Below are positions 1-24,462 of a stretch of DNA of 64,000 bases, one piece after another. Within the stretch, counting starts at the first letter, position 1, and each line of letters begins with the position of its first letter. The notes beneath the pieces were generated by a model. The model was not told where the DNA came from and did not search any database. It saw only the letters and a list, made by a program, of their open reading frames with translations. Origin of the DNA: Pedobacter glucosidilyticus DSM 23534 (GTDB taxonomy: Bacteria > Bacteroidota > Bacteroidia > Sphingobacteriales > Sphingobacteriaceae); contig NZ_AULF01000003.1 of the NCBI RefSeq assembly GCF_000425145.1, positions 124,001 to 188,000 on the forward strand, given 5' to 3'. Both the position numbers and the translations under genes were made by a program.

Positions 1-1414
1 CATTGATAATGATCAACTCGAAACCTACCGAATAATTAAACCAGCTTAAAGAATTAGCATCAATAACAAAAGACAAAATTGGCGATAAAATACAAATAAT
101 AGGAACTAAACTATCTTTTACATTTCTGTAAGTTAACATCCCAAAAGCAAATAAGCCTAACAGAGGTCCATAAGTGTACCCTGCAGCTTTAAAAATAGCA
201 TTAACAACAGAATCATCGTTGATAAGTTTAAATATCAATACCACAAGAAAAATCAATACCGAAAAAACAATATGAACATAATGCCTGATATTAACCAGTT
301 TTGATGAATTTTGATCTTGCTTTTTATCGAAACCTAAAAAATCTACACAAAAAGAAGTGGTAAGGGCTGTTAAAGCAGAATCTGTTGTAGCAAATGTAGC
401 GGCAGTTAAACCCAACATGAAAACAATGGCTGGCACTACTCCTAGATAATTTAAGGCTATTTCTGGAAAAAGATGGTCTGGTGTACCTAAAGCTTTTACA
501 TCAATACCTTTGGCTGCAGCGAAAGTATAAAGTAAAGCTCCCACACTTAAAAAGAAAATATTGATACAAACAAATATCCCTGTAAAGGTAAGCATGTTCT
601 TTTGTGCCTCACCTATATTTTTACAGCTTAAGTTTTTCTGCATCAAATCTTGGTCTAAGCCTGTCATGGCAATAGTGATAAATAAACCACCTAGAAACTG
701 TTTAATAAAATGATTTCTATTACCCACAAAATCATCCCAAAAGAAAATTTGCGAATAACTACTGGTTTTAACTGTTTCTATAGTGCTAGCAATATCAAGA
801 TTTAAACTTTTAGCGATGAAATAGATAGACAATACAACAGATGAAAGTAAGAATACTGTTTGTAAGGTATCTGTAATGATAATGGTTTTTAAACCTCCTT
901 TAAAAGTGTAAGACCATATCAATAACAAGCAAATGATGATGGTTATCCAAAAAGGCACATTCCATGCATCGAAAATAAATTTCTGTAATACAATAGCTAC
1001 CAAATACAATCTAAAAGCAGAGCCTATGGTACGAGAAACCAAAAAGATCATGGCTCCAGATTTATAGCTCCAGAAACCTAGTCTACGCTCTAAGTAAGAA
1101 TAAATAGAAATGATATTTAACCTATAGTACAAAGGTAGCAATACCGTAGCTATCAAAACAAAGCCCACAGCATTTCCTAAAACAAATTGAAAATAACCAA
1201 AAGCACTTTTATCTACAGCACCAGGAACAGAGATAAATGTAACACCCGAAAGTGCAGTACCTATCATCCCGAAGGCAACAAAATACCACTTAGAGTTTCT
1301 GTTAGCAATAAAAAAACTAGCATTATCTGATGAGCCTTTAGAGGTGAAATATGATACCCCTATAAGCACCAAAAAGTAAATGATTAAAAAAGATAATAGC
1401 GTAATGGGCTCCAT
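1..1414 (-). CDS. Sodium:solute symporter (SSS family), 3' end outside window
   Basis: Inner-membrane Na+-coupled transporter; the first 471 codons are visible and the C-terminus lies left of position 1. The reading frame starts at an ATG at 1414 (MEPITLLSFLIIYFLV) and continues open to the edge. Many hydrophobic helices alternate with short loops. The segment AMTGLDQDLMQKNLSC (about residues 245-260) is typical of Bacteroidota SSS proteins of the sugar/sialic-acid-like branch. It starts 14 bases after the murQ stop codon, so it is almost certainly cotranscribed with murQ. By context the cargo is inferred to be MurNAc or a MurNAc-containing fragment released by the upstream glycosidases. The substrate cannot be read from the sequence; family assignment is firm. 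Confidence 0.9.
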   Translation of the reverse strand, partial: MEPITLLSFLIIYFLVLIGVSYFTSKGSSDNASFFIANRNSKWYFVAFGMIGTALSGVTFISVPGAVDKSAFGYFQFVLGNAVGFVLIATVLLPLYYRLNIISIYSYLERRLGFWSYKSGAMIFLVSRTIGSAFRLYLVAIVLQKFIFDAWNVPFWITIIICLLLIWSYTFKGGLKTIIITDTLQTVFLLSSVVLSIYFIAKSLNLDIASTIETVKTSSYSQIFFWDDFVGNRNHFIKQFLGGLFITIAMTGLDQDLMQKNLSCKNIGEAQKNMLTFTGIFVCINIFFLSVGALLYTFAAAKGIDVKALGTPDHLFPEIALNYLGVVPAIVFMLGLTAATFATTDSALTALTTSFCVDFLGFDKKQDQNSSKLVNIRHYVHIVFSVLIFLVVLIFKLINDDSVVNAIFKAAGYTYGPLLGLFAFGMLTYRNVKDSLVPIICILSPILSFVIDANSLSWFNYSVGFELIIIN

Positions 1415-1428
1415 GTATGATTTAATTT

Positions 1429-2241
1429 TTAATGGCTAATAAGAACACTTTCAATAGCTTTTCTTACGCTACCATATTTTTCTAGTAATTGCGTTGCAAC
1501 ATCGTGGTCTTTACCTGTTTCTTGCATAATCATGTTAATACCTCTGCTAAATAACTTATGATTAGTCAATTGCATATCAACCATTTTATTGCCTTTTACA
1601 CGACCCAGTTGAATCATAACACTGGTACTTAACATATTGAGAATAAGTTTTTGTGCTGTACCAGATTTCATACGGGTAGAGCCAGAAACAAACTCAGGAC
1701 CAACAACTACTTCTACCGGGTATTGTGCTTCTGCAGCCACCGGACTACCCACATTACAAACTACACAACCTGTAACAATACCATGTGCATTGGCGGTATT
1801 CAATCCTCCTATCACATAAGGTGTAGTGCCTGATGCTGCAATACCTACTACCACATCGTCTTCGGTAATATCAAATTCTTGCAAGTCTTTCCAGGCTTGC
1901 TCTGTATCGTCTTCTGCAAACTCTACGGCTCTGCGTATGGCAGTATCTCCACCTGCAATAATACCAACAATCCAATCAAACGGAACACCAAAAGTAGGCG
2001 GACATTCTGATGCGTCTAAAACGCCTAACCTGCCACTAGTACCAGCACCTATATAAAATAAGCGACCACCTTTTTTCATTTTCTCGGCCGTAATGGTCGC
2101 TAATTTCTCCAGTTGAGGAATAGCTTTAGCAACAGCATCGGCAACTGTTTGGTCTTCTTTATTGATGTTATATAAAATTTCTCCAACGCTCATTTTATCT
2201 AAGTCGTGGTAGTTAGATTCTTTTTCTGTTACAATTTCCAT
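1429..2241 (-). CDS. murQ: N-acetylmuramic acid 6-phosphate etherase MurQ
   Basis: Cytoplasmic etherase that splits MurNAc-6-phosphate into GlcNAc-6-phosphate and D-lactate, the committed step of MurNAc catabolism. The 270-residue protein has the SIS-fold signature GAGTSGRLG (65-73), the DASECPPT segment with the family catalytic Glu (Glu79) and the GSTRMKSGTAQK block (187-198). It is slightly shorter than the E. coli enzyme (about 298 residues) at the C-terminus but has all core motifs. The start at 2241 aligns with the family N-terminus. It lies 26 bases downstream of the GH3 gene and 14 bases upstream of the symporter. No MurNAc kinase is in the window, so the phosphorylated substrate must come from a kinase gene elsewhere, possibly just left of position 1. 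Confidence 0.97.
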   Translation of the reverse strand: MEIVTEKESNYHDLDKMSVGEILYNINKEDQTVADAVAKAIPQLEKLATITAEKMKKGGRLFYIGAGTSGRLGVLDASECPPTFGVPFDWIVGIIAGGDTAIRRAVEFAEDDTEQAWKDLQEFDITEDDVVVGIAASGTTPYVIGGLNTANAHGIVTGCVVCNVGSPVAAEAQYPVEVVVGPEFVSGSTRMKSGTAQKLILNMLSTSVMIQLGRVKGNKMVDMQLTNHKLFSRGINMIMQETGKDHDVATQLLEKYGSVRKAIESVLISH

Positions 2242-2267: not shown

Positions 2268-3971
2268 TTATTTATTTGCAATGCCAAACCCAAAATGATA
2301 GCCCCCACCAATGCTTACTGGCAAAGTACCATTGGCTTTTATCTCACCTTTTAAAAAACTTAAAACGGCTTCATGCATCAATTTATCATCCTCATAAGCA
2401 GCTACCAGATTGTTTAAATCGGTAAAATTACTCATGGCATAAGGTGTACCAAAAGCAATGTTAATAGCTTTATTTTGTAGGTTAACCTGCTTAATAAAAT
2501 TGATGGCTGTTTGACTAATACCAAAATTGTTAGCCGGGTATTTTGTGTATTGATGCACACCAATAATCATTACATCGTATTTGCTTTGTAATTGCTGCAA
2601 TAAAACATTGGCTTCTTTTTCAGTCGCATCGTAAGGTAAACAATAGCTATCTGCCGTATAGGTATTTTTCAAGAGCTCAGAAAAATGATTTTCAGCTTTT
2701 AAACCCACACCTACAAATGCTATTTTTTGTTTATAGTTAAGCGGAGAAATGGTAGAATCTGTTTGTTTAAGCACTGTAATAGCTTGCTTATAGATTTCCT
2801 TTTTTAAAGGAACAACCAACTCGTTAAGCTCGTTAACTAAATTTATAGTATCAATAACAGGTACTTGATAAAGACCTAAATTGTATTTAGCAATTAAAAC
2901 ACGATTTACTTTAGCCTGTATATCTTCCCAGCTTAATTCTTTTTTACGGATAGCTTTTCTAATCCTTTTGATGCTCCCTTTAATATCGCCAGGCAAACAT
3001 AACATATCATTACCTGCAATTAAAGACTGTGCTGCTGCCTCACCTTGCGGATAAAACTTAGCAACACCTTTCATTTCCAGCGCATCGGTAAAATTAATCC
3101 CTTTAAAACCTAAGTCGTTCCTTACCAAATCAGTTACATTTTTTTTGGATAAGGAGGAAGCTTGATTAACTGTAGCATCAATAGCTGGGATGTATAAATG
3201 CCCCATCATCATACTGCCAACACCAGCTTTAATCATTTCTTTAAAAGGATAAATCTCTAAAGAATCTAATTGTAATTTAGATTTAGGGATTACCGGCAAA
3301 TCATAATGAGAATCAACACTTACATCGCCATGCCCCGGAAAATGTTTAGCGCAAGCCATCACACCTGCTTGCTGCATACCTTGCGTAAGCGCTATGCCAA
3401 ACCTAGCTACTTTGTATTTGCTCTCCCCAAAAGACCTTACATTTATTACCGGATTAGCAGGATTGTTATTGATATCAACCACAGGCGCATAATTAACCTG
3501 TATACCTGCCCTTTTACATTGTATACCCATAGCATGCCCCATTTGATAAGCTAAATCTGCATTGGCTACAGCACCTAAAGTTAATTGATTGGGGAAACGT
3601 AAGATGTCATCAAAGCGCATCCCAACACCAGTTTCGCCATCTATACAAACCATTAAAGGTGTACGGGCTTGCTGTTGTAGCTGATTAACCGTTAGGGCTT
3701 GTTGGATAGCTTTCCCCTGAAAAAGGCAAATAGAACCAATGTTATATTTTTGGATATATCTTGATACTTCTTTGGTATAAAAAATAGCAGAATCACCACT
3801 TCTTTCTGATAACCTCAATACCATGAGTTGAGCAATTTTCTCTCTCCTGTTTAGCTTTTTATAAACGCTATCTGCCCATTGTTGCGAAGCCTTAGAAACT
3901 TGTAAAAATTCTTGCGCCTGCACTCCGCCTGATAATAACATCAGGGAAAATATGATGAGTTTTTTAATCAT
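2268..3971 (-). CDS. Glycoside hydrolase family 3, NagZ-type beta-N-acetylhexosaminidase (exported)
   Basis: Predicted periplasmic or surface exo-beta-N-acetylglucosaminidase that removes terminal GlcNAc from muropeptides. A signal peptide (MIKKLIIFSLMLLSGGVQAQ) precedes a GH3 TIM barrel. The motif KHFPGHGDVSVDSHYDLP (about 209-226) carries the His/Asp acid-base dyad of NagZ enzymes, and FTDALEMKG (about 292-300) carries the nucleophile Asp. The region after about 370 fits the second alpha/beta domain seen in Bacillus-type NagZ; no beta-lactamase-like domain is attached, unlike many longer Bacteroidota homologues. The ATG overlaps the end of the phosphoesterase gene by 8 bases, indicating translational coupling. 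Export implies that GlcNAc is removed before uptake. Activity on other beta-hexosaminides is possible. Confidence 0.92.
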   Translation of the reverse strand: MIKKLIIFSLMLLSGGVQAQEFLQVSKASQQWADSVYKKLNRREKIAQLMVLRLSERSGDSAIFYTKEVSRYIQKYNIGSICLFQGKAIQQALTVNQLQQQARTPLMVCIDGETGVGMRFDDILRFPNQLTLGAVANADLAYQMGHAMGIQCKRAGIQVNYAPVVDINNNPANPVINVRSFGESKYKVARFGIALTQGMQQAGVMACAKHFPGHGDVSVDSHYDLPVIPKSKLQLDSLEIYPFKEMIKAGVGSMMMGHLYIPAIDATVNQASSLSKKNVTDLVRNDLGFKGINFTDALEMKGVAKFYPQGEAAAQSLIAGNDMLCLPGDIKGSIKRIRKAIRKKELSWEDIQAKVNRVLIAKYNLGLYQVPVIDTINLVNELNELVVPLKKEIYKQAITVLKQTDSTISPLNYKQKIAFVGVGLKAENHFSELLKNTYTADSYCLPYDATEKEANVLLQQLQSKYDVMIIGVHQYTKYPANNFGISQTAINFIKQVNLQNKAINIAFGTPYAMSNFTDLNNLVAAYEDDKLMHEAVLSFLKGEIKANGTLPVSIGGGYHFGFGIANK

Positions 3972-5811
3972 GTTGCTTATATTTTAGATAGCTTATTTTG
4001 CCATCCATTGTACTTACCATTACTGCATTATTACGGATGGGTTTAATGGTATTGATTAAACAATTTGAGGTTTTATGTTTCCAAATTACCGCTCCATCCT
4101 TTTGGTTAAGCGCCACAGCTAAACCAGAATGGGTAGATATAAAAACTTGATTTTTATAGGTTGTAATAGCTGCCGGATTAAGCTCATAAGACAATTGTAA
4201 TGGAGATTCCCAGCTAACCTTAAAATTTTCTGCCGATGTAGAAACGCCTATAATTTTACCATCCATGGTTTTAGCATAAACCAATTGTTCATCAACAGAT
4301 AAACCTATAGATTCTCTTACCCTGTTATTTGCTAACGTCTCCCGCCAGATAACTTTTCCACTTTCGGCATCAAAAGCGGTCATATACCTATCTGGTGCTA
4401 CAATAAAAACTTTACCATTTGCAGCAACAGGCCAACATGCGGCCGGCGAATACATCCTGTTGGCAGAGCCATTGGTCCATTTCCAAGCCTCTTTACCTGT
4501 TTTGGCATCTAAAGCATAAAAATAATTTCCCCAACTACCAAAATACAGCTTGCCTTGGTACAAAAGTGGCTTGGTTACCACAAAACCCTTAACTTGCGGA
4601 TAGTCCCAGATTAAATTTCCATCAGTTACAGATAAAGCTCTAAAATGCCCATCAGACGAGCCAAAATAAACCCTATTATCCATAACTAAAGGACTGCCCA
4701 AAATAGCTTTAGCTGTTTTATACTTCCACTCTAAATTTCCAGTTTTAGCATTTAAACAATACAAATACCCATCTGTAGAGCCAACTAAAACACTATTTTG
4801 ATAAACATAAGGGGTACTGTATATTTTACCCTGTGTTTGAAATTTCCATTGCTGCTTTCCTTTAGTCTTGGTTAAAGCATAAACCTCACCTTTGGTATTA
4901 GCACTGATAAATAAATGCTTAAATTGAGCTATACCAACACCCAAATCACTATCATCCTGAAACTCCCACTTCACTTTTACCTGAAGATACTGCTTATTTA
5001 CAGCAAAATTTGGTCGTGGATAGTTACTTGGCTGAAGATGAAAAGCATGGTCTTTAAGTGTTACACTTAACCAAGTTTCTTTTAAATCAGTTAAAGGTTT
5101 TTGAGTGGTAAATGTAGCTTCGTTATTGGCTATAGTAACAATGTTATAACCTCCAACAGTATCTTTAGCCCTTAAATTAGAACGTCCCATCACGTTTGGA
5201 ATACCCTCAAATTCATATTTTTTGTTTTGATGACCATGCCCGCACAGCATCAATTGGATATTCTTTTTCTTGAGAATATCGATAGCGCTGTACCAATTGT
5301 TTAAAGAAGAATCCTGCGGATAATGATTCACATAAATAATTGGAGTTCTATCCTTAACGGTATTTAAAACAGAGTCTAGCCAAACAATATCTTCTCTAGG
5401 AATTTGACCCGGCCCCATCCTCATATACGGACCAGAACCAGTACCTACAAACCTGTATCCATTATAAGTAAAGGTAAAAGTACCCGATTTAAAAGTAGTT
5501 AAAAATGAATTTCCGCCACTCTCAGACCAATTGGTATCATGGTTACCCGGAGTTACATAATAAGGCTTGTTTAAACTATCCAAAATCTGCTTAGCCAATT
5601 TTAGCTCTTCATCAGAGCCAAATTCAGTTACATCACCTGATACGATAACAAATTTAAGTTCAGAGTTACGATTGATATCCTTAACGGTTCTACGTAAATC
5701 ATCAGCACCTGTTACATTACCAATATGGGTATCTGTAACATGAGCAAATTTGAAGGGTTGAGCAAAGGAATTGAATCCTAACAACAACAAAAAAATCAAA
5801 ATTGGCCTCAT
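3964..5811 (-). CDS. Exported metallophosphoesterase fused to PQQ-like beta-propeller
   Basis: Two-domain exported protein. After a signal peptide (MRPILIFLLLLGFNSFAQ) comes a calcineurin-like phosphoesterase domain with DTH (27-29), GDVTEFG (Asp60), GNHD (89-92), a distal NHYPQ and GHGHQ, which together make a full dinuclear metal site. From about residue 290 to the end are repeated WKF/GSxDGxLYxLNAKTG blades of a PQQ-like propeller. The start at 5811 was chosen for the signal peptide; an ATG 9 bases upstream is also possible, and a longer frame to 5868 would put extra residues before the signal. It heads the unit with GH3, murQ and symporter and has motif repeats just upstream. The physiological phosphoester is unknown; a role in dephosphorylating cell-wall or teichoic-type fragments is only a guess. 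Confidence 0.85.
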   Translation of the reverse strand: MRPILIFLLLLGFNSFAQPFKFAHVTDTHIGNVTGADDLRRTVKDINRNSELKFVIVSGDVTEFGSDEELKLAKQILDSLNKPYYVTPGNHDTNWSESGGNSFLTTFKSGTFTFTYNGYRFVGTGSGPYMRMGPGQIPREDIVWLDSVLNTVKDRTPIIYVNHYPQDSSLNNWYSAIDILKKKNIQLMLCGHGHQNKKYEFEGIPNVMGRSNLRAKDTVGGYNIVTIANNEATFTTQKPLTDLKETWLSVTLKDHAFHLQPSNYPRPNFAVNKQYLQVKVKWEFQDDSDLGVGIAQFKHLFISANTKGEVYALTKTKGKQQWKFQTQGKIYSTPYVYQNSVLVGSTDGYLYCLNAKTGNLEWKYKTAKAILGSPLVMDNRVYFGSSDGHFRALSVTDGNLIWDYPQVKGFVVTKPLLYQGKLYFGSWGNYFYALDAKTGKEAWKWTNGSANRMYSPAACWPVAANGKVFIVAPDRYMTAFDAESGKVIWRETLANNRVRESIGLSVDEQLVYAKTMDGKIIGVSTSAENFKVSWESPLQLSYELNPAAITTYKNQVFISTHSGLAVALNQKDGAVIWKHKTSNCLINTIKPIRNNAVMVSTMDGKISYLKYKQHD

Positions 5812-5830
5812 AAATATCATATTGTCGATA

Positions 5831-5872
5831 TATGCGTTTATCAAACAAATTAACGCAAAATAACGCAAAAGT
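5831..5872 (-). promoter_or_regulatory. Candidate operator: tandem AACGCAAAA plus inverted TGCGTTT
   Basis: Two perfect adjacent copies of the 10-mer TAACGCAAAA occupy 5851-5870, and an inverted ATGCGTTTA sits at 5832-5840, 20-60 bases ahead of the phosphoesterase start. The same GCGTT/AACGC core appears before SusC2, SusC1, the T9SS GHL10 gene and the distant NamZ gene. Interpretation as a shared regulator site is an inference from recurrence. Confidence 0.5.
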
Positions 5873-5923
5873 TAAAAGTATAAGCCGAATATATTTTTTA
5901 CAATATCATTCGGCCTACAAGTT

Positions 5924-6370
5924 TTATCTTACTGTCAAAACTAGATTTGAACTTTTAGTTAAGGTATTTTTATTAGTAACAACCACCTGCATATTTATAG
6001 TGGTACCAACACTAACATTGGGTACCGTATAATTTAAAAGAAGAGAGTCTGTCTTAGAAACATTAGAATAAGCACTTTGATAAGGAGTGGTAGAAACTGT
6101 TTGTTGCGTACCTGTTCCTACGGTTGCTTTAAGTTCAACCTTATCAATAGGATCATCAGACCAGTATCTAAGATCAAATCTTACATTTTGTCCAGCTGTT
6201 ACATTATTGTTAGCTTGTGTTGGCGTTATACTAAAGCCAGCTATTACAGGTAACTTACCTATCACGGTAACATTATCTTTAAGCCATTGGTCAGCATCTT
6301 TTTCACATGCAGTAAAGCATATAGGTAATGCTAAAAGAACCATTAAATATCTAAATTTATATAATTTCAT
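5924..6370 (-). CDS. Small PUL lipoprotein with Ig-like fold (unknown function)
   Basis: Not assigned to a named family. The start at 6370 gives MKLYKFRYLMVLLALPICFTACEKD, a lipoprotein signal with the lipobox Cys at residue 22; a longer frame from 6397 would bury this signal. The rest (about 125 residues) is beta-rich, with alternating polar/hydrophobic strands and ending in SSNLVLTVR, like the Ig/fibronectin-type surface lipoproteins that follow SusD in many PULs. It lies 11 bases after the SusD2 gene, so it is in the same transcript. A role as an accessory surface glycan-binding protein is inferred from position only. About 100 bases separate it from the phosphoesterase gene. Confidence 0.7.
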   Translation of the reverse strand: MKLYKFRYLMVLLALPICFTACEKDADQWLKDNVTVIGKLPVIAGFSITPTQANNNVTAGQNVRFDLRYWSDDPIDKVELKATVGTGTQQTVSTTPYQSAYSNVSKTDSLLLNYTVPNVSVGTTINMQVVVTNKNTLTKSSNLVLTVR

Positions 6371-6381
6371 AACTTTATCAT

Positions 6382-7851
6382 TTATTGAAACAACCATAAT
6401 TTAACACCTTGATTAGGAATTCTAGGAACATTTGGATTTCTGCCAGGTTCATTATCTGGATAATTCCCTCTTTGAATCCATTGTACAGCACCATTAGTTC
6501 TATTGGTAAAAGGCGGAGTTAAACCTCTATAAATGTTGGTATCGTAATCATATCTCCTCATATCTGTCCATGTTTCCATCTGTAAAAATAAAGCAATATA
6601 TTTCTGAAGCATGATATCAGATAATGTTAAAGCATTAAAACCTTTTGAAATTAATGGGTTATTAACATATAAATCTGCATTGGCAGTACTTACACCAAAT
6701 TTTTGCATACTCGCTCTAATACCACTTAAATAAGCATTATAAGCCTCTAATTTATTTACACTAAACAAGGCTTCAGCCTTAATAAATTGAGCTTCGGCAT
6801 AAGTTAAAATTGGGACAGGAGAAGTAGTTTTACCATAATAAGTATTAGCGGTAATATCGGTATTAGCCAAATTTGCTCCTTGCTCATTGTCTTGTGTACC
6901 AACCGGACGACCTATATAACTTGCTGCACCTCCATTATCAACAAGTAAAGGTAATCTTGGATCAAATAATGCAGGATAAACACCTGTTAAACTTCCATTT
7001 AAAAGATCTACAAAATATTTAGAGGGTCTTGCATAACGTGACGCTGCTGCCGTTACAGACAAATTGGTAAACCAAGGATGATTCCTTTCTGTAGTATAAA
7101 CAAGCTGCAAGTCAGAAGCTCCAGTAGCATCATTAATACCTCTGTCTATATCTGTTACGGCTAAAGCTGCATTGGCAGCGTTCTTTTTGGATAAATGAAT
7201 ATAATATCTTCCTCTTGCAGTATAGGCCGCTCTTAACCATCTATCTATATTACCTCTATAAAATAAATCTGTTGTACCTACTCTAGCACTTGCTAATGCA
7301 GGTTGTGGTTGAGATAAATCAGCAATAGCACCGTCCAACAAGCTTTTTAAATAATTGTTATATATATCTTCTTGCGAATCATATCTAGGGCTTAAAGTAA
7401 CAGATGGATTAAAAGCTTCTGAATAAGGTAAATCTCCCCAAATATCTGTACTCTGCATCAAAGTTAAAGCAGTTAACAGTTTTGCGATACCAGCATAATG
7501 CGGTAAGTTATTTTGCTCTGCTCGCTCTCTTAAATCTTTCAGTGTAGGAAGAGCTCTTAAATATGCTGATTCCCAAATATTATCAAAACCATAAGGATTA
7601 TAAGAATCAATATTAGCGGCTTGATTAGCATTACCTGCCAGATATTGAGGATAGAAATTACCAAATTGTCCAACATTCCAAAAAGAAGTTGCAGTATATT
7701 GTATGGCGGATGGTAATAATCCAGCTTCTGTAACTTGTCCGCCCGTTAACCTATCAGGGTCTTGGTTAATATCGAGTTGCTTTTCGCATGAACTCATGAC
7801 CATTAGGCCACAAAAAGCATAAGTTAATATTTTAATTTTATTCGTTTTCAT
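6382..7851 (-). CDS. SusD/RagB-type outer-membrane lipoprotein (SusD2)
   Basis: Surface glycan-binding lipoprotein that acts as the lid of its SusC partner. The 489-residue precursor has a lipoprotein signal (Cys22 in MSSCEKQ) directly followed by LDINQDPD, the N-terminal hallmark of the SusD-like_2 group. Tetratricopeptide-like helices, the segment ILTYAEAQFIKAEALF (about 347-362) and the C-terminal ETWTDMRRYDYDTN block are typical of the family. It starts 10 bases after the SusC2 stop. Its ligand is unknown; the surrounding murQ, NagZ and GHL10 genes suggest peptidoglycan fragments. Confidence 0.93.
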   Translation of the reverse strand: MKTNKIKILTYAFCGLMVMSSCEKQLDINQDPDRLTGGQVTEAGLLPSAIQYTATSFWNVGQFGNFYPQYLAGNANQAANIDSYNPYGFDNIWESAYLRALPTLKDLRERAEQNNLPHYAGIAKLLTALTLMQSTDIWGDLPYSEAFNPSVTLSPRYDSQEDIYNNYLKSLLDGAIADLSQPQPALASARVGTTDLFYRGNIDRWLRAAYTARGRYYIHLSKKNAANAALAVTDIDRGINDATGASDLQLVYTTERNHPWFTNLSVTAAASRYARPSKYFVDLLNGSLTGVYPALFDPRLPLLVDNGGAASYIGRPVGTQDNEQGANLANTDITANTYYGKTTSPVPILTYAEAQFIKAEALFSVNKLEAYNAYLSGIRASMQKFGVSTANADLYVNNPLISKGFNALTLSDIMLQKYIALFLQMETWTDMRRYDYDTNIYRGLTPPFTNRTNGAVQWIQRGNYPDNEPGRNPNVPRIPNQGVKLWLFQ

Positions 7852-10978: not shown

Positions 10979-11025
10979 TGCGCAAAAACGCAATTTTTTT
11001 TAAAAAAAACGCATAAAAACGCATC
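10979..11025 (-). promoter_or_regulatory. Candidate operators upstream of SusC2
   Basis: TGCGCAAAAACGCAA (10980-10994) and ACGCATAAAAACGCAT (11009-11024) lie 71-115 bases ahead of the SusC2 start, separated by an A/T run. Both carry the ACGCA core in paired spacing; the second abuts the stop codon of the upstream GHL10 gene. They resemble the sites at 20.9, 24.5 and 5.85 kb. Function inferred from recurrence. Confidence 0.5.
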
Positions 11026-13817: not shown

Positions 13818-15452
13818 TTATCTTCTAACATTGTCTATAGCAATACCATAAGGTGCATAACCTCTGGTAGCTGGTATAAAGGCTGGGGCAGTACTACCAT
13901 CCAAAGGATATATTTTCACACCTGAGTTTACTGCAGGATTATTTCTAATTGTAGGGGCGTTAGGATCACCTGATATATCCAAATCGCTACGGTATCCATA
14001 ATATAAATACCCTCCAGTTGGTAAACTGGCATCTAAATTTAATGCTAAACCAGTTATGTAAACCCATTCATTTGCAGAACCTTCTTGTGAAAAAGCATTT
14101 GCTGCTACTTGCATACTTGGGCCATTATCAATAGCTACTACATTGTTACCATCAAGATCTGCTCTGTACAAACCATAAGCCCCAACATTAACAGCAAAAT
14201 AAATCTTACCATGCACTTGGTCTACTACAAATGATCTGATGGCATAATTCATAATGTTTCCACCTAATGGTGCAATGAAGTTTCCAGCTGTACTAAATCT
14301 CCAGATTCCTTTTCCTGTTGTACCGGTTTTAGAAAGCCAAAGCTCATTATTTACAAATTTTATATCACCATCAAAATAAGTAGCAGTTGATACGCCAGCA
14401 TTTGCTGCAGTTAGAGCAAATCTTGATAGTGGATACTGTGCATCCACAGCGTTAAGAGGTACTGTTCTTACCCCACCGTTTCGTTCTGTAAACCAAATAT
14501 TTCCGCTATTATCAAAAGTATGCATCCATGGATCATTTCTATAATCAACAACTTGTGGTGCAGGAGGTGCTACAAAGTTGGAAGACCTGGTTAAAATTAC
14601 CGGATTAGAACCATTAATATCATAAGAAGTAATATTCCCATCAGGGGCTGCATTTACACCTGAACTAAACCTTAATCCTTTACCTGTCTCTACAACATAA
14701 ATTCTGTTATTAAAAACACTCATAGATAATGGGTGTAAAGTTGTAGCAATATTAGTTTGTTGAACAACTGCGTTTTGCGCAAAACTTAGTCTATAAATCC
14801 TCTGGGTAATGGCATCTGTAAAATACAAGCTTCTTGCCAGCTCACCTTTTACTTCAATAATCCTGGTTACCGTTAGTATTTCTTCACCATCATTAACAGT
14901 TAATGTTATGGTATGAAGACCCTCTCTTTCAAAAGCAACAGTTGGATTTTGTTCATTTGAAACTAAACCTGGCTCATCAAAATCCCATGAGAATGTAATA
15001 TCTCTATCTGGAAATTTAAAGGCAGAAGCCTGAAATTCGTAATCATTAAACACCTCTATATTGGCTGGAGCTGTAATAACTGGGGTTCTCTTTCTTACAA
15101 CAAGCTCTCTAACCAAAGAATCCACCCTACCATCTTGCCAAGCTGTTAAGGTTACTTTATAGGTGCCTGGCAGTTCGTACACTATAGTATCAGGCACAAT
15201 CTTGGTACTAGAAGATATATCTTGTAGCCCTTCATTAGTTAAAATTTTACCCTGCGGAAAGTTCCATAAAAACCTTTCTGAAAACCTTGAACGGTTTGTT
15301 AAAATAAGTTTGGTTGGAGCGGTGATATTACCCTGAGGAAAATCAAAATAAACATCAAATTCTCCCGTGGGCTCAATTCTGCTGATTTCATCTTGCTTGC
15401 AAGCTCCTGCAAACAAAAAAACCGCCATTAAATACAATAAATATTTTTTCAT
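13818..15452 (-). CDS. PKD-domain surface lipoprotein with C-terminal propeller-like region
   Basis: 544-residue lipoprotein (signal MKKYLLYLMAVFLFAGAC, Cys18). Two PKD-like Ig domains follow: about 30-122, with FLWNFPQG and PGTYKVTLTAWQDG, and about 123-202, with FSWDFDEP and EGLHTITLTVNDGE. From about 210 the sequence has repeated IYxxDxxGNN-type strands (YFTDAITQRIYRL, IYFAVNVGAYGLYRADLDG), suggesting a beta-propeller. No catalytic motif is recognised. It sits between a small lipoprotein (11 bases upstream) and GH18, the place where PULs usually encode SusE/SusF-like surface glycan-binding proteins; that role is an inference. Confidence 0.75.
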   Translation of the reverse strand: MKKYLLYLMAVFLFAGACKQDEISRIEPTGEFDVYFDFPQGNITAPTKLILTNRSRFSERFLWNFPQGKILTNEGLQDISSSTKIVPDTIVYELPGTYKVTLTAWQDGRVDSLVRELVVRKRTPVITAPANIEVFNDYEFQASAFKFPDRDITFSWDFDEPGLVSNEQNPTVAFEREGLHTITLTVNDGEEILTVTRIIEVKGELARSLYFTDAITQRIYRLSFAQNAVVQQTNIATTLHPLSMSVFNNRIYVVETGKGLRFSSGVNAAPDGNITSYDINGSNPVILTRSSNFVAPPAPQVVDYRNDPWMHTFDNSGNIWFTERNGGVRTVPLNAVDAQYPLSRFALTAANAGVSTATYFDGDIKFVNNELWLSKTGTTGKGIWRFSTAGNFIAPLGGNIMNYAIRSFVVDQVHGKIYFAVNVGAYGLYRADLDGNNVVAIDNGPSMQVAANAFSQEGSANEWVYITGLALNLDASLPTGGYLYYGYRSDLDISGDPNAPTIRNNPAVNSGVKIYPLDGSTAPAFIPATRGYAPYGIAIDNVRR

Positions 15453-15463: not shown

Positions 15464-16228
15464 CTAATATTTAGCCTGAAAAACTGTTAATACTTCGTTA
15501 AAGGCTTTATTTTGTGAGGTTACCTTTACCTTCAGATTTGTAATCAGCTCTCCTTTTTTAGTTGCCGTCCTCAAAGCATTATTAATCAAAAGCTGCCTGG
15601 TTAAGTTAGCGTTTAGATTAGCTCTTCCGGCTGCTGTTAAGGAACCACCACTAATATCACTAGTAGGTGCCGTTGGAAATAAAGCTCTATAATCTAAAAC
15701 ATTAATATTTCTACTCAAATGATCTTTCAAAGAGGCAAATCCTTCATCAGAAAGCGCATTGATTAATTCTGCATCCTTAATATCCTGTGGTACAAACTTT
15801 TTATAAACATTTCTGATAACGTAAGCATCGCTAAGTGTTTCGTAAAATTTGTTCAGCTCATTATTCTCGTTTATAATGGTATAGTAGATATTATCTGTTT
15901 CAACAGAATCTACTACAAGATATACGGGTACATCATCCACAAAAGAATTTAAAGTAGTATTATTCAAAACAAGGTTTACTGCATACTTTTCTACTACAGT
16001 TTCAGAAAATTCTACTTTATCAATAATGTCATTAATATGCCATGTAGAGGCTGTAAGAATAATAGAGTCTCCTATTGCGGGTGTTCTGTTATTTAAAGTA
16101 ACTCTTAAAGTTGCTCTGTGGGCATTATTATCAAGTGTATTACCTAAATCTGTAATCGGACTTTCTTTTTTACAGGATAGCAGTCCTAGGGCCAATCCTG
16201 CAATTAAAAATATGTTAATGCATTTCAT
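15464..16228 (-). CDS. PUL-associated lipoprotein, unknown function
   Basis: 254-residue lipoprotein with signal MKCINIFLIAGLALGLLSC (Cys19). The N-terminal half is beta-rich (ATLRVTLNNRT, DKVEFSETVVEKY), and the C-terminal half is helical, with many Asn and Leu. No family recognised. It starts 4 bases after the SusD1 stop, so translation is probably coupled. Position right after SusD suggests an accessory surface binding protein for the same ligand. Confidence 0.7.
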   Translation of the reverse strand: MKCINIFLIAGLALGLLSCKKESPITDLGNTLDNNAHRATLRVTLNNRTPAIGDSIILTASTWHINDIIDKVEFSETVVEKYAVNLVLNNTTLNSFVDDVPVYLVVDSVETDNIYYTIINENNELNKFYETLSDAYVIRNVYKKFVPQDIKDAELINALSDEGFASLKDHLSRNINVLDYRALFPTAPTSDISGGSLTAAGRANLNANLTRQLLINNALRTATKKGELITNLKVKVTSQNKAFNEVLTVFQAKY

Positions 16229-16232: not shown

Positions 16233-17753
16233 TTAGTTTTTTAATTGTGACTGTTCTGCCCACCACACTGGATTAAATACCCAATCTCTGGCATCTGCAC
16301 CAAATCTTGCAATCTCCTGTGGGTTATAAATATATTCGGTTTGTCTATCGTACGGAAGTCTTTGAATCCATCTTCCTTGCCATTCTGCAAGCGCATTTCT
16401 TGGATAATAGATTCCCGGATAAGCTGTTGTACTATATCCATACCTACGCATATCTACCCAAGTTTCTCCTTGAAGATACATGGCAACATATTTTTGCATC
16501 ATGATATCACTGATTTTTAATACAGTAGGATCTGAAACTACTTTAGATGTAGTCATATATGCGGCAATATCAGCATCAGAAACCCCTAATCTTCTTAAGT
16601 TAGTTTCTATACCTAGCTCATAAGCTGCGTGTGCTGCCTCAAGATTTCCTTTATAAAACAAAGCTTCTGCTTTTATGAAATAAAGCTCTTCCTTTAGGAT
16701 AAATGGCGCAGGAGAATCATTTCTTGTCCAAAAACCATTATACAAGTTCGCAAAATCTGCCATGGTAGTTCCTGTTGGTAAACCCAGCGTAGACAAACCT
16801 TCTGAAGCTCTAGCAGCTAAATACCTGTTATTGGCTCCTGGCGTTGTAAGTTTAAACAATCTAGGATCGTAAGTTAAACCGGCTTCATTTAATGTTAAAT
16901 AATTCATTAAAAAATCGGTATGCATAGATTCCACCAATACATTTCTTATATCAGCGAAGTTAAATTCAGGACTTGCAACTTGTGGGCCCCATAAATTCAT
17001 TTCCCATTCTCTGGTAGCACCAGCTGGATATTTGTATATCGCATCATCAAAATTTGCTAATGCATCATCTACAGTGGTAATTAAACGATCGTATCCATTA
17101 TCAAAATTTGCTGTATGCAAATACATTCTAGCTTTTACTGCTTTTGCAAAAGCAGCCCATTTTCTCAAGTCGCCACTAAAAATTAAATCGGAAGTAGCAT
17201 TCATAGGTCTATCAGAAGGACTCGCTTTTTCAAGATCAGCCAAACCTTCATTCAATAAGCTTTCAATACCTGCATATACTTGTTGTTGCGGATCGTAAAC
17301 AGGATTGAAACTCGCACTATAAGCCTGAGAATAAGGCATATCTCCAAAAGAATCTGTTGCAGTAAGGTAAGAGTAAGCTAACATAATTTTAGCTACACCT
17401 AAATAATTAAATGAGCCCTCTCTTTGTGCAGTTTCAATTAAGCCTCTACAATTACTTCCAACATCAAAATAATGCCATCTCCATGCGCCTAAACGGGTAA
17501 TGGCGTTATAATCTAATTGAGACTCGATTCTTGTATTTGATAATCTTGTAGTAAGGTAAAAAGAGTGATAACTAGCAAAACGAGCATGTGAATAATTGTG
17601 ATAGGCCATATTTCCTAAAATGGCTGGTAACCTTAAATTAGATGGTGAGGTTACCGGGTTTACTGGATTTACATTAATATCGAGTTTAGAACACGATGTT
17701 AATAGAAATACCGCCAGTAATATCGAAAATGTTTTAAAAATATTTTTCATCAT
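16233..17753 (-). CDS. SusD/RagB-type outer-membrane lipoprotein (SusD1)
   Basis: 506-residue SusD-like_2 protein. Lipoprotein signal to Cys21 (LLTSCSK), then LDINVNPVNP as in SusD2. Family blocks include LIETAQREGSFNYLGVAKIMLAY-type helices, FILKEELYFIKAEALF (about 349-364) and GETWVDMRRYGYSTT near the C-terminus. It begins 8 bases after SusC1. The protein is clearly paralogous to SusD2 but diverged, suggesting that the two SusCD pairs take up different products, for example glycan strands versus smaller muropeptides. Confidence 0.93.
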   Translation of the reverse strand: MMKNIFKTFSILLAVFLLTSCSKLDINVNPVNPVTSPSNLRLPAILGNMAYHNYSHARFASYHSFYLTTRLSNTRIESQLDYNAITRLGAWRWHYFDVGSNCRGLIETAQREGSFNYLGVAKIMLAYSYLTATDSFGDMPYSQAYSASFNPVYDPQQQVYAGIESLLNEGLADLEKASPSDRPMNATSDLIFSGDLRKWAAFAKAVKARMYLHTANFDNGYDRLITTVDDALANFDDAIYKYPAGATREWEMNLWGPQVASPEFNFADIRNVLVESMHTDFLMNYLTLNEAGLTYDPRLFKLTTPGANNRYLAARASEGLSTLGLPTGTTMADFANLYNGFWTRNDSPAPFILKEELYFIKAEALFYKGNLEAAHAAYELGIETNLRRLGVSDADIAAYMTTSKVVSDPTVLKISDIMMQKYVAMYLQGETWVDMRRYGYSTTAYPGIYYPRNALAEWQGRWIQRLPYDRQTEYIYNPQEIARFGADARDWVFNPVWWAEQSQLKN

Positions 17754-20947: not shown

Positions 20948-20958
20948 AATCAGTTGAA

Positions 20959-20999: not shown

Positions 21000-21010
21000 C
21001 TGTATAGGTA

Positions 21011-22621
21011 TTACTGTTTTACAAATTTTATGGATTGTACTTCGTTTTGTAAGCTTATAACTTTAATAAAATAGATACCTGGCATCAAAGTGGATACATC
21101 AATACTAGTAAGTTCATCGGCTTTTCCTTTAATAAAATCTTGACCTACCATATTGTAAACGGTATAACTAGCTCCTTTTAAAGAAAGCGGTGTACTTAGG
21201 GTCAAAGTATTTTGAGCAGGATTAGGATAAATTTTAACAGCTAATTCATTTAAAACATTATTTACTACTCTAATCGTTGAGTATTCAACATCGCCATTTA
21301 AGTCGATTTGTTTTAAACGATAGTAGTGGGTACCTGCTGGCACTGTTTTATCTTCATAGCTATAATTAATTAAGGATGAAGAATTACCTTGTACAGCTTT
21401 AGAAGCAACAAAACCAATTGAGGCGAATTCCACTCCGTCTGTAGATCTTTGAACATCAAACCCCCTATTATTAGACTCAGAGGCAGTTGTCCAATTTAAT
21501 TTGCTAACGCCATTGGATAATCCAGCAGTAAATGAAGTTAAAGAAACTGGAAGGGTTGACGCAGTAGTATAAGCAGCCATACCATTATTACAAATTAAAT
21601 TATAGAAAGTATAAGTTCCATTACCGTTCTTTTTATAAGCAACATCCGCATAAGCATTTGTATTTTGATAAAATGTTAATGGAGCTGCTGCTGTCACATC
21701 ACTTAATTTGCCAGTTCCAACTTCTGTAACACCGTCTGTAGGTGGTGTCGTGAAATTTGTTATTTTATACAATTTAAAATCAAATCCTAGTCCTGTGGCA
21801 GCATTGTATGACCCTCCTATTACCGCACCTGAAACAGCTAAATACTTTTCTGAACCTTCTTGTATGTATTCTGTATTAGCGTAAATTTGATTGATTGCAG
21901 ACGAAGCTACCGCACTAGTGGAAGTAATCGTTCCAGTTGAAGCTATGGAAATTCTTCTTGCTTCAACACTTGGAGCATTTATCCATATATCCGATGATGA
22001 TGGAATAGCAGAAATAGAAGATCTTGCTTGACTAGCAGCTCCTAAGGTTACTGTATTATCAAGTGTAAATGTTACTCCATCTGTAGTTTTACAGATAAAT
22101 AATTTCGTGTTATTAGCTCCACTTAAATATATTACAGTATTTACTCCTGTACCAGTTACAGCAAAAGAATCTCCAACACGACCGGTTATCGAAATTGCAG
22201 ATGTAGTTGGTGCAGTATCTGATTCTGAAGCCCACCTATAAATGTAAATTGTTGCAGCATCTGTAACAGACGCTGGATTAGTCATATTACACGCATAAAT
22301 CACACCATCATCGGTAACTCTAATCTTAGTATATTTAAAACTTTGTGTCCAAGCTGGTGCCGTATTTAACACAGTTAGAGTTGATGGGCTACTCAATGCT
22401 CCAGTAGCAGGATTCAAGATACTGATTTTATTATTACGCTCAGGCAAATAAAGTTTATCTGTTACTTTATTATAGGCAATAGTTGTCTGTAAAGATGTAT
22501 TACCAATCAAAGCTCCCGTAGTTGTTGTAGCAAGAATTTCCCAATTTTTTGTTAAAGGTCCTTGACTGTAAGCATTTAAACTCCCAGCCAAAAGCAACAT
22601 ACAAAGTAATTTTTTTCTCAT
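21011..22621 (-). CDS. Secreted protein with type IX secretion sorting tail
   Basis: 536-residue exported protein: signal MRKKLLCMLLLAGSLNAYSQ, a long Ser/Thr/Ala-rich beta region (about 20-360) with propeller-like repeats, a fibronectin-like segment around LNWTTASESNNRGFDVQRSTDG (split by family variation, about 375-455), then a type A T9SS C-terminal domain: VKIYPNPAQNTLTLS, GASYTVYNMVGQ and GIYFIKV, ending KFVKQ. The tail directs export through the type IX system and surface attachment. No catalytic motif is seen. It lies 47 bases after the T9SS GHL10 gene and is likely cotranscribed; a surface adhesion or substrate-capture role is an inference. Confidence 0.8.
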   Translation of the reverse strand: MRKKLLCMLLLAGSLNAYSQGPLTKNWEILATTTTGALIGNTSLQTTIAYNKVTDKLYLPERNNKISILNPATGALSSPSTLTVLNTAPAWTQSFKYTKIRVTDDGVIYACNMTNPASVTDAATIYIYRWASESDTAPTTSAISITGRVGDSFAVTGTGVNTVIYLSGANNTKLFICKTTDGVTFTLDNTVTLGAASQARSSISAIPSSSDIWINAPSVEARRISIASTGTITSTSAVASSAINQIYANTEYIQEGSEKYLAVSGAVIGGSYNAATGLGFDFKLYKITNFTTPPTDGVTEVGTGKLSDVTAAAPLTFYQNTNAYADVAYKKNGNGTYTFYNLICNNGMAAYTTASTLPVSLTSFTAGLSNGVSKLNWTTASESNNRGFDVQRSTDGVEFASIGFVASKAVQGNSSSLINYSYEDKTVPAGTHYYRLKQIDLNGDVEYSTIRVVNNVLNELAVKIYPNPAQNTLTLSTPLSLKGASYTVYNMVGQDFIKGKADELTSIDVSTLMPGIYFIKVISLQNEVQSIKFVKQ

Positions 22622-22668
22622 AATAATAATTTTTAAGTGATATAGTTGGATTAATTTTCTTTTAACAT

Positions 22669-24462
22669 TTATTGAATAATTATTTTAGAACGCTCTATCA
22701 AACCTTTCCCTTGTATATATAAAATATATAAGCCTGATTGCAGATTTACATTTAGCAAGAAACTGGATTGCCTTCTCGTAGATAAAGATTCCTCAAATAC
22801 TTTTCTTCCTGTTAAATCCGCAATGGATACCGCTATCTCATCTTCTTTGTAGGTATCAGGAAAAACCAAATGAACTTGATTTTGTGTAATTGGGTTAGGA
22901 TAAATCTTAACGACTTGATGATTAATTTCTTGTTCGCCTGGTAAGCTGGTGGTTAGAGTTGAAACGATATTAGACCCAATACTTTCATTATGAAAACGAT
23001 CTAAGGCTGTTACTTGATAATGATAATTCCCATTACCTATGGTTTTATCGGCAAATCTACCCGCACCAGCAGGTACTATAGCTAAAATATTTGCTGCATT
23101 TGTTAAATCGATGGTAGCGTTTAAAGACCTATATACCACAATTTGCTTTACCTTATCAAACTCTCCTAAACTATTCTGATTGGGTAAAGACCAATTTAAC
23201 ACCAAAGAATCTGCTCCAAACTTAGCCCCTTGTAGATTAGCAACCGCTTGCGGGGCTACATTATCTTTCCAAGGCATTAAAGGCAATAGTGCTTTTGTAT
23301 TGTAGAAACGTAGTCTTAAAGAATCTCTAAAATTAAGCCTTGTGGTACTTAACAAGCTGTTGGTATTATAGAACACTTCGCCATAAACATTAGCAAAACT
23401 TCTGTTTAATCTAATTTGGTTCGGTATCTCTGATCGCTGTGTCCAATTTGTTCCTTGGGTAGCATCATTAACTTTATAACCAGCCATACCAATATAGATA
23501 TGTCTTCCGGCAGCATTATTATTCCACCATGGTACTATACGACTATAATCTGCACCGGGCTGCCCTATATACCAATATACCTGCGGAGTTAAATAGTCAA
23601 CCCATCCTTCAGCAATCCATTTTTTAGAATCAGCATATAATTGCGAATAATGTTGTAGGCCGGAAGTTGGTGTTCCAATATCTGGGTTGCTACTGTTTCT
23701 ATAGATACCAGATGGCGACACCCCGAACTTAACCCAGGGCTTAGCTGCGTTAATCAATTGGTATACTCCTTGTATCAGAAGGTTCACATTATCTCTTCTC
23801 CAATCATCCCTGTTAGTAAAACCTCTAGCATGATTCTGAAAAGTAACATCATCATTAAAAGTAGCATTAGGGTAAAAATAATCATCAAAGTGTATCCCAT
23901 CCACATCATATCGGTTAACAATATCCGAGATAACAGTATTGATGTAAGTTCTAACCTCAGGTAAACCAGGGTCTAGCGTTCTTAAATTACCAGCTTGTAA
24001 CAGCCATTCGGGATGCCTTCTAGCCACATGGTTAGCAGCAAAACTATTGATTGTATTAACATTACTAATCGCCCGGTATGGGTTCAACCAAGCATGAAGC
24101 TCCATCCCTCTTTTCTTACACTCTTCTATAGCAAATTGTAAAGGATCCCAAAAAGGAGAAGGCGCAAGCCCTTGCGTTCCAGTCAAATCGGCAGACCAAG
24201 GTTCAATGGTACTTGCATATAAAGCGTCACACTGACTTCTTACTTGCAGGTATATCACATTTATACCCGTTGCTTGATGATGATTTAAAATATTGATTAA
24301 TGCACTTTTTTGCTGAGCAACAGATTGTGTCCTAACAGGCCAATCTATATTAGAAAAGGTTGTAAGCCATGCCCCCCTAAGCCCTCTCTTTGTACTGTTT
24401 TGAGCAAAAGCAGCATTTAAATTTATAACAAAAAGGAATAGCAAAGTAAATCTTATCACCAT
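22669..24462 (-). CDS. GHL10-type glycosidase (DUF187) with T9SS tail
   Basis: 597-residue paralogue of the protein at 11,024-12,532. Signal peptide, then GLRGAWLTTFSNIDWPVRT, NVIYLQVRSQCDALYAST, GMELHAWLNPYRA and YDVDGIHFDDYFYPN (about 190-204), all shared with the paralogue; WVDYLTPQVYWYIGQ is the late-barrel motif. A fibronectin-like domain (about 410-500) is followed by a type A T9SS tail (VKIYPNPITQNQVHLVFP, VSIADLTGRKVF, GLYILYIQGKG). Thus this copy is predicted to be secreted or cell-surface bound, acting on polymer outside the cell. Motif copies directly upstream link it to the SusCD units. Exact cleavage specificity is unknown. Confidence 0.88.
   Translation of the reverse strand: MVIRFTLLFLFVINLNAAFAQNSTKRGLRGAWLTTFSNIDWPVRTQSVAQQKSALINILNHHQATGINVIYLQVRSQCDALYASTIEPWSADLTGTQGLAPSPFWDPLQFAIEECKKRGMELHAWLNPYRAISNVNTINSFAANHVARRHPEWLLQAGNLRTLDPGLPEVRTYINTVISDIVNRYDVDGIHFDDYFYPNATFNDDVTFQNHARGFTNRDDWRRDNVNLLIQGVYQLINAAKPWVKFGVSPSGIYRNSSNPDIGTPTSGLQHYSQLYADSKKWIAEGWVDYLTPQVYWYIGQPGADYSRIVPWWNNNAAGRHIYIGMAGYKVNDATQGTNWTQRSEIPNQIRLNRSFANVYGEVFYNTNSLLSTTRLNFRDSLRLRFYNTKALLPLMPWKDNVAPQAVANLQGAKFGADSLVLNWSLPNQNSLGEFDKVKQIVVYRSLNATIDLTNAANILAIVPAGAGRFADKTIGNGNYHYQVTALDRFHNESIGSNIVSTLTTSLPGEQEINHQVVKIYPNPITQNQVHLVFPDTYKEDEIAVSIADLTGRKVFEESLSTRRQSSFLLNVNLQSGLYILYIQGKGLIERSKIIIQ

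What the first reader, a model, noticed from the sequence alone, without database searches (positions are those of the whole stretch)
1..24462. A large candidate peptidoglycan (MurNAc) utilisation locus built from two SusCD systems
Seen: a single-strand block of a symporter, MurQ, an exported NagZ-type GH3, a metallophosphoesterase fusion, two SusC/SusD pairs, a GH18, two GHL10 proteins, a T9SS cargo protein and three more lipoproteins. Known: MurQ acts only on MurNAc-6-P, NagZ on muropeptide GlcNAc, and SusCD pairs import oligosaccharides. Inference: the locus is a surface-to-cytoplasm pathway for feeding on cell-wall glycan, not merely recycling one's own wall. I cannot tell whether such a complete murein PUL has been described.
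Basis: partly seen in the sequence, partly recalled or inferred. Interest (0 to 1): 0.75.

Follow-up and report, generated by a model that had tools for sequence, protein, structure and literature searches.

The report
Gene cluster for eating bacterial walls
A bacterium of the family Sphingobacteriaceae carries a large gene cluster that very probably lets it cut up, import and burn the wall sugars of other bacteria, and its relatives carry versions with swapped import parts, so a little-studied way of recycling dead bacterial biomass becomes testable.

Summary
The last, outside the window, encodes a FAD/Fe-S enzyme resembling D-lactate dehydrogenases; MurQ releases D-lactate. Comparison supports peptidoglycan feeding. 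In 101 family genomes, 39 of 125 MurQ copies lie within 20 kb of GHL10 or the exo-muramidase NamZ. Related loci also carry amidases, NlpC/P60, an epimerase-like enzyme, AnmK or beta-lactamases. The locus MurQ is distinct from the genome's second MurQ. Correction: the two SusCD pairs are exchangeable cassettes. At the same site one sister species has only SusCD2, another only SusCD1, a third neither between its flanks, and a fourth lost the locus but kept the dehydrogenase. GHL10a matches Cwp19, a demonstrated lytic transglycosylase. The locus has no recognisable kinase, NamZ or peptide-stripping enzyme; AnmK lies elsewhere. Nothing was assayed, and SusCD2-GH18 might serve chitin-like glycans. 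My paper searches, whose longer lists were only partly shown, found no described SusCD peptidoglycan locus.

The parts
1..1414 (-). SSF-family sodium:solute symporter (492 aa; its end lies outside the window, at -64). Putative MurNAc/anhydro-MurNAc importer.
   Evidence: PF00474; full ORF L005:17936-19414; solved SSF relatives, (third row 5nv9; that it is a sialic-acid transporter is recalled)
1429..2241 (-). MurQ, MurNAc-6-phosphate etherase (270 aa)
   Evidence: NF003915 and TIGR00274 over cut-off; groups with symporter-linked MurQs
2268..3971 (-). Exported NagZ-type GH3 beta-N-acetylglucosaminidase (567 aa)
   Evidence: PF00933; solved YbbD/NagZ relatives; KHFPGHG, DSH, TDALEM motifs
3964..5868 (-). 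Exported metallophosphoesterase + BamB-like beta-propeller fusion; conserved core gene of the locus family
   Evidence: five metal-ligand motifs; 13-sequence alignment and model
5924..6397 (-). LP157, small lipoprotein of the SusCD1 cassette
   Evidence: lipobox; relative beside SusCD1 in G076 (43%) and G101 (80%)
6382..7851 (-). SusD1
   Evidence: PF12771
7862..10993 (-). SusC1 (likely start about 27 codons inside the listed ORF)
   Evidence: TIGR04056 over cut-off
11024..12532 (-). GHL10a, signal peptide, no T9SS tail; putative lytic transglycosylase/muramidase
   Evidence: PF02638; Cwp19 E=2.3e-99
12720..13766 (-). GH18, catalytic DGIDIDWE present; probable lipoprotein (Cys 19, judged by eye; the lipobox pattern did not match)
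   Evidence: PF00704; chitinase-type solved relatives; motif
13818..15452 (-). PKD-domain lipoprotein (544 aa), putative surface glycan-binding protein
   Evidence: PF00801; lipobox
15464..16228 (-). LP254 lipoprotein of the SusCD2 cassette
   Evidence: no Pfam; lipobox; relatives in L020, G048, G006
16233..17753 (-). SusD2
   Evidence: PF12771
17761..20784 (-). SusC2
   Evidence: PF07715 plug and CarbopepD_reg_2; 71% relatives in G048 and G006
21011..22621 (-). T9SS cargo protein, unknown function, fast evolving
   Evidence: PF18962; dN/dS 0.55
22669..24462 (-). GHL10b with T9SS sorting domain, putative secreted peptidoglycan-cleaving enzyme
   Evidence: PF02638 + PF18962

Best explanation
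The locus is an accessory, modular polysaccharide-utilisation locus for bacterial peptidoglycan glycan. Proposed path: secreted GHL10b (T9SS) and surface GH18 cut glycan strands. SusCD1 and/or SusCD2 import the fragments. In the periplasm GHL10a and the NagZ-type GH3 reduce them to GlcNAc and MurNAc or 1,6-anhydro-MurNAc, and the phosphoesterase-propeller protein removes phosphate-linked substituents. The SSF symporter takes up the sugars. AnmK (or a BadF-type kinase), encoded elsewhere, makes MurNAc-6-P. MurQ yields GlcNAc-6-P and D-lactate, and the adjacent FAD/Fe-S dehydrogenase oxidises the D-lactate. Shown here: gene content, linkage in relatives, same-site variation, purifying selection, sequence relation to enzymes of known activity. 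Inferred: each enzyme's substrate and location, what the SusCD pairs carry, the phosphoesterase's role, and induction by peptidoglycan.
For: MurQ over curated cut-offs. Tannerella MurT, an SSF-superfamily symporter in one operon with MurQ, is a MurNAc uptake system (PMC5790795, passages). GHL10a vs Cwp19 E=2.3e-99, with all 12 residues that the Cwp19 structure paper lists for the active site kept (read by eye); Cwp19 is a lytic transglycosylase (PMC6016235, passages). Of 125 MurQ copies in 98 of 101 family genomes (own included), 17 lie within 20 kb of GHL10 and 32 within 20 kb of NamZ, against 1.5 and 1.6 expected. Of the best 80 named MurQ loci (588 found), the 23 with the symporter carry the phosphoesterase fusion in 12, NamZ in 7, GHL10 in 11; the other 57 carry 0, 0 and 2. 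Of 10 family loci read in full (chosen, not random, one of them sister G091), NlpC/P60 and an epimerase-like enzyme are in 5, NamZ in 7, the D-LDH-type enzyme in 7. AnmK in own genome; AnmK beside MurQ in Chitinophaga. Symporter-linked MurQ needs 3 label changes on the tree vs 36.8 in shuffles. Purifying selection.
Against: No enzyme or transporter was assayed. No MurNAc kinase, NamZ, amidase or endopeptidase is recognisable in the locus. GH18's solved relatives are chitinase-type; SusD1 and SusD2 match many SusD structures weakly, a chitin-binding SusD among them. GHL10b has Tyr-Asn where Cwp19 has Phe-Ser. GHL10 and NamZ also have widespread copies away from MurQ. The symporter-linked MurQs are not shown to be one clade; deep forks are weak. 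Sister G103 has the core with no SusCD between PNP and the D-LDH-type gene (a SusC-like ORF, 29%, lies just beyond), and G101 has SusCD1 without GHL10 and with its symporter split in two frames. The D-LDH-type enzyme's matches cover lactate, glycolate and hydroxyglutarate enzymes, none over an NCBIfam cut-off, and it occurs in 7 of the 14 genomes of the genus without the core gene (one only 30% identical). G091 has the locus but no DeoR gene within about 7.5 kb.
Confidence: 0.8

Rival explanations
1. Mixed amino-sugar locus: the core serves MurNAc, but the SusCD2-LP254-PKD-GH18 cassette brings in chitin or other GlcNAc oligosaccharides.
For: GH18 resembles chitinases; a GH3 beta-N-acetylglucosaminidase, RmNag3, cuts chito-oligosaccharides (PMC6987092, passages).
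Against: The same cassette sits in murQ loci of g7 genomes (G048, G006) and Parapedobacter composti beside NamZ, and is the only SusCD seen in sister G091's locus. No GH20 match in the locus.
Confidence: 0.3
2. Recycling of the cell's own wall turnover products.
For: MurQ, NagZ and AnmK are recycling enzymes in other bacteria (recalled).
Against: A second MurQ elsewhere (C21), a MurQ in all 9 same-genus genomes sampled, core gene in only 4 of 18 genomes of the genus; SusCD and T9SS parts face outwards.
Confidence: 0.1
3. Bacteriolysis of competitors: secreted GHL10b and cargo mainly lyse neighbours, uptake being secondary.
For: GHL10b has a T9SS signal; Cwp19 gave lytic bands on Micrococcus cells in zymograms (PMC6016235, passages).
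Against: Most of the locus is uptake and catabolism; G101 keeps core and SusCD1 without any GHL10 at the site.
Confidence: 0.1

Closest known systems
Tannerella forsythia murTKQ operon (MurNAc uptake, kinase, etherase)
   Same: SSF-superfamily symporter next to MurQ; MurNAc catabolism without a PTS (PMC5790795, passages seen)
   Different: Here no kinase in the locus, and SusCD pairs, GHL10, GH18, GH3, a phosphoesterase fusion and a D-LDH-type enzyme are added. Direct sequence comparison with Tf_MurT was not made (sequence not fetched).
Clostridioides difficile Cwp19 (GHL10 lytic transglycosylase)
   Same: GHL10a matches over 360 residues at E=2.3e-99 with all 12 listed active-site residues
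   Different: Cwp19 has CWB2 cell-wall-binding domains and works in autolysis; GHL10b here carries a T9SS tail. Activity here untested.
Bacillus subtilis YbbD/NagZ (within the murQ-nagZ-namZ gene group; the group is recalled)
   Same: Exported GH3 NagZ with MurQ in one gene group; YbbD entries among the best solved matches
   Different: No SusCD or T9SS there (recalled); NamZ is at a separate place here (61908-63116).
Classical SusCD polysaccharide-utilisation loci
   Same: SusC/SusD pairs, surface lipoproteins, glycosidases
   Different: Catabolic end is MurQ and a D-LDH-type enzyme; two different SusCD cassettes in one locus, present or absent in sister species.

Membership tests
SusCD polysaccharide-utilisation locus | Adjacent susC-susD pair | tested here: met
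   Two pairs
SusCD polysaccharide-utilisation locus | Carbohydrate-active enzymes in the same run | tested here: met
   GH3, GH18, two GHL10
SusCD polysaccharide-utilisation locus | Linked regulator | tested here: inconclusive
   DeoR-type gene at window -5994 to -5251 (L005); near the locus in 7 of 10 loci read in full and lost with the locus in G075, but not found near G091's locus
SusCD polysaccharide-utilisation locus | Induction by, and growth on, the glycan | not testable with these tools
   needs expression and growth tests
murTKQ-type MurNAc pathway | MurNAc-6-P etherase MurQ | tested here: met
   over cut-offs
murTKQ-type MurNAc pathway | SSF-superfamily importer next to murQ | tested here: met
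   substrate not tested
murTKQ-type MurNAc pathway | MurNAc kinase MurK (BadF family) in the operon | tested here: not met
   none in the run; three weak BadF hits elsewhere, below cut-off; AnmK on C5
GHL10 lytic transglycosylase (Cwp19 type) | GHL10 domain and the 12 active-site residues listed in the Cwp19 structure paper | tested here: met
   GHL10a 12 of 12; GHL10b 10 of 12 (read by eye); Asp195, discussed apart in the paper, is kept in both
GHL10 lytic transglycosylase (Cwp19 type) | Anhydro-MurNAc products from peptidoglycan | not testable with these tools
   needs enzyme assay
NagZ-type GH3 | KHFPGHG loop with catalytic Asp-His and the nucleophile Asp (motifs recalled) | tested here: met
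   alignment to YbbD
NagZ-type GH3 | Reaches NCBIfam beta-N-acetylhexosaminidase cut-off (NF003740, a 340-position model) | tested here: not met
   160 bits vs cut-off 207; it is nevertheless the best NCBIfam match
Chitin-utilisation locus | GH18 chitinase-type enzyme | tested here: met
Chitin-utilisation locus | GH20 hexosaminidase in the locus | tested here: not met
   no match

The most novel reading that the evidence does not exclude
These loci are a widespread modular family of SusCD systems for foreign, especially Gram-positive, cell walls. The phosphoesterase-propeller protein, together with the NAGPA phosphodiester glycosidase found in several relatives, would strip phosphodiester-linked wall polymers from MurNAc, and a GH9-plus-deacetylase pair would stand in for NagZ in some lineages.
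Probability: 0.25. Interest if true: 0.75.

Novelty: new variant of a known kind. Interest (0 to 1): 0.58.

Why it matters
Peptidoglycan is a major part of dead bacterial biomass, but who feeds on it and how its fragments cross the outer membrane is little known (general knowledge, not searched beyond the calls named). If correct, this locus family gives candidates for peptidoglycan-importing SusCD transporters, a role for GHL10 proteins in feeding, and a natural set of sister species with two, one or no import cassettes, which makes the transport question directly testable.

Tried and rejected
Own-wall recycling only: rejected as the main role because a second MurQ sits elsewhere and the locus is accessory. 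N-glycan feeding through GH18: not favoured; the 60 solved matches shown (of 116) are chitinases and chitinase-like proteins. A promoter pattern for Bacteroidota gave 5 matches vs 5.8 by chance. Foldseek with the phosphoesterase-propeller model lists BamB-like, designed and other propellers in its 50 rows shown (of 1986) and says nothing on the phosphoesterase substrate. A PADLOC scan of three proteins gave only weak hits, all for the phosphoesterase fusion. Paper searches for a peptidoglycan SusCD locus showed none in their listings; some searches listed only 20 of 41, 15 of 119 and 20 of 202 papers, and the library lacks most subscription journals, so this is weak evidence of novelty. Own-genome amidases, AmpG and nagA/nagB were not searched.
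Full report
WHAT IS THERE. The window is part of a 4.02 Mb genome (G000:C2:124001-188000). In transcription order: GHL10b with a T9SS tail; T9SS cargo; SusC2; SusD2; LP254; PKD lipoprotein; GH18; GHL10a; SusC1; SusD1; LP157; metallophosphoesterase-propeller fusion; GH3; MurQ; SSF symporter. Beyond the window start comes one more gene, 15 bases downstream of the symporter: a 945-aa FAD-binding and 4Fe-4S protein (L005:15083-17920; FAD_binding_4, FAD-oxidase_C and Fer4 matches). Its solved relatives include lactate dehydrogenase LctD, glycolate oxidase, a D-lactate dehydrogenase and a D-2-hydroxyglutarate dehydrogenase; no NCBIfam cut-off is reached. MurQ releases D-lactate (PMC5790795, passages), so a D-lactate oxidase here makes sense, but its substrate is inferred. 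The run is 16 genes over about 27.4 kb. It may be several transcripts (terminator-like hairpins).

ENZYMES. MurQ exceeds its curated cut-offs. GHL10a has one solved match at E up to 0.01, Cwp19, at E=2.3e-99 over 360 residues. Cwp19 was shown to be a lytic transglycosylase giving 1,6-anhydro-MurNAc ends (PMC6016235, passages). Of the 12 residues that the Cwp19 structure paper lists for the active site (PMC5765458, passages), 12 are kept in GHL10a and 10 in GHL10b, which has Tyr-Asn in place of Phe-Ser; I read this by eye. GH3 has the NagZ loop and dyad (motifs recalled) and matches YbbD. GH18 keeps DGIDIDWE. The phosphoesterase keeps its metal-ligand motifs, and the solved sequence matches to that domain are the 2dxl/2zo9 phosphohydrolase group at E about 5e-8 (that these are the glycerophosphodiesterase GpdQ is recalled). 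Its model has mean pLDDT 81, and Foldseek finds BamB-like propellers.

LINKAGE IN RELATIVES. In 101 family genomes (own included), MurQ is in 98 (125 copies), GHL10 in 91 and NamZ in 100 (at E up to 1e-30, 1e-30 and 1e-20). GHL10 and NamZ also have widespread copies away from MurQ, so presence alone means little. Within 20 kb, 17 of 125 MurQ copies have a GHL10 and 32 have a NamZ (10 have both), against about 1.5 and 1.6 expected for random places in a 4.4 Mb genome; the 39 copies lie in 38 genomes of 10 genera, and 86 copies have neither. In the best 80 of 588 named MurQ loci from a separate collection, 23 have the symporter. Of these, 12 have the phosphoesterase fusion, 11 GHL10, 7 NamZ, 7 GH3, 4 an amidase and 2 AnmK; of the 57 without the symporter the counts are 0, 2, 0, 3, 0 and 0. 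Flank lengths differ, and fused ORFs such as the one in L020 are missed by the coverage filter. In 10 family loci read in full, chosen from the MurQ hits rather than at random and including sister G091, NamZ is in 7, GHL10 in 6, the phosphoesterase fusion in 9, NlpC/P60 and a mandelate-racemase-type epimerase in 5, beta-lactamase in 3, NAGPA in 3, the D-LDH-type enzyme in 7, the DeoR regulator in 7, and SusC in 10 (named by BLAST to proteins whose Pfam matches come; some SusD partners gave no BLAST hit and were inferred from size, position and lipoprotein start).

TWO MURQ COPIES. On a 110-row tree (three identical rows dropped) the symporter-linked label needs 3 changes against 36.8 in shuffles. 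The locus MurQ groups with symporter-linked MurQs of Pontibacter and other genera (support 83/85 for the 24-row group), and the genome's second MurQ (C21) lies elsewhere. Symporter-linked MurQs are not shown to be a single clade: a Sphingobacterium/Parapedobacter group, Chitinophaga and G103 branch apart, with weak deep forks.

SAME SITE, FIVE STATES. Among 18 genomes of the genus (own included) the phosphoesterase fusion occurs in 4, each at the ClpX-PNP site. The window genome has both SusCD cassettes. G091 lacks the SusCD1-LP157 stretch (window about 5766-11002). G101 has SusCD1 but lacks SusCD2, GH18 and both GHL10s (about 10831-24503), and its symporter is split in two frames. G103 has the core, GHL10a and a cargo-like gene but no SusCD between PNP and the D-LDH-type gene; a SusC-like ORF (29%, cut by the slice end) lies just beyond that gene. 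G075 lacks everything from the symporter to PNP (window -65 to 25492) but keeps the D-LDH-type gene, and has also lost the DeoR gene (-6051 to -5231) while keeping the gene between. Because symporter, D-LDH-type gene and DeoR lie together in other genera, G075 is best read as a loss. The D-LDH-type gene is in 11 of 18 genomes of the genus, 7 of them without the core gene (one only 30% identical). Both cassettes recur in murQ loci of other genera: SusC1/SusD1/LP157 in G076 (67, 59, 43%) and SusC2/SusD2/LP254/PKD/GH18 in G048 (71, 63, 38, 45, 57%) and G006, and all but the SusC, which lies outside the slice, in Parapedobacter composti. So the two SusCD systems look like interchangeable modules around a constant core. 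The locus genes compared with G091 are under purifying selection, the T9SS cargo least.

MECHANISM AND GAPS. The proposed route is given under best explanation. The kinase step could come from AnmK on C5 or from BadF-type proteins, of which three hits below cut-off exist; Tannerella MurK belongs to that family (PMC5790795, passages). A NamZ lies about 37 kb from the locus, at 61908-63116. An epimerase-like gene (52%), a NAGPA gene and three NlpC/P60 genes lie elsewhere in the genome. Thus this version of the locus covers the glycan part, and peptide handling, if any, must come from elsewhere.

NOVELTY. The nearest described system I found is murTKQ of Tannerella. In the passages I saw, its papers describe no SusCD import of wall sugars (PMC5790795, PMC7670621; the one 'susc' match shown in the former is the word susceptibility, the one in the latter was not displayed). 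A 2024 review of TonB-dependent uptake has no match for peptidoglycan fragments or muropeptides (PMC11658791, term search). My searches (three of them listed only in part) showed no described SusCD peptidoglycan locus, within an open-access library only. I class it as a new variant of a known kind.

Noticed in passing
window 24597-24694 and 25492-25589: Perfect 98-base direct repeat: the 3' end of the nucleoside-phosphorylase-like gene is duplicated around an orphan 188-aa gene (24720-25286). Sister genome G091 carries two tandem units about 894 bases apart (L156).
   Followed up: partly
L012, L014, L015, L022, L030, L044; G016 and G074 loci (L172-L175): In 10 of 23 symporter-linked loci GH9 is seen without a GH3 (4 of them with a separate deacetylase hit), in 4 GH3 without GH9, in 3 both, in 6 neither; in L012 and L014 GH9 and deacetylase are one protein. 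Possibly an alternative way to remove GlcNAc by deacetylation then exo-cleavage.
   Followed up: partly
L008:5864-9709 (-): One 1281-aa protein joins a phosphodiester glycosidase (NAGPA), a Golvesin_C domain and a metallophosphoesterase next to NamZ; may act on wall-polymer linkage units.
   Followed up: no
window 61908-63116 (+): NamZ-type exo-muramidase gene standing apart from the locus.
   Followed up: partly
L185:361-1838: The symporter of G101 is split in two reading frames (288 and 184 aa) in a one-contig genome; decay or a sequencing error.
   Followed up: no
window 21011-22621: The T9SS cargo evolves far faster than its neighbours: 52% identity to G091 and dN/dS 0.55, against 94-100% and at most 0.11 for the 12 other locus genes with a counterpart.
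   Followed up: no
L073: A record titled Bifidobacterium breve MAG carries a MurQ that falls inside the Flavobacterium rows of the tree; probably a misbinned contig.
   Followed up: no
L076:10804-11997: In Chitinophaga sp. YR627 the anhydro-MurNAc kinase AnmK sits directly after symporter and MurQ and before a DeoR regulator; C. pinensis (L084) also has an AnmK hit in its slice.
   Followed up: partly
GH3 of G066, G076, G006, G029, G048 loci: GH3 proteins of related loci are about 980-1000 aa against 567 aa here; the extra part was not scanned and may be the beta-lactamase-like domain described for RmNag3 (PMC6987092, passages).
   Followed up: no
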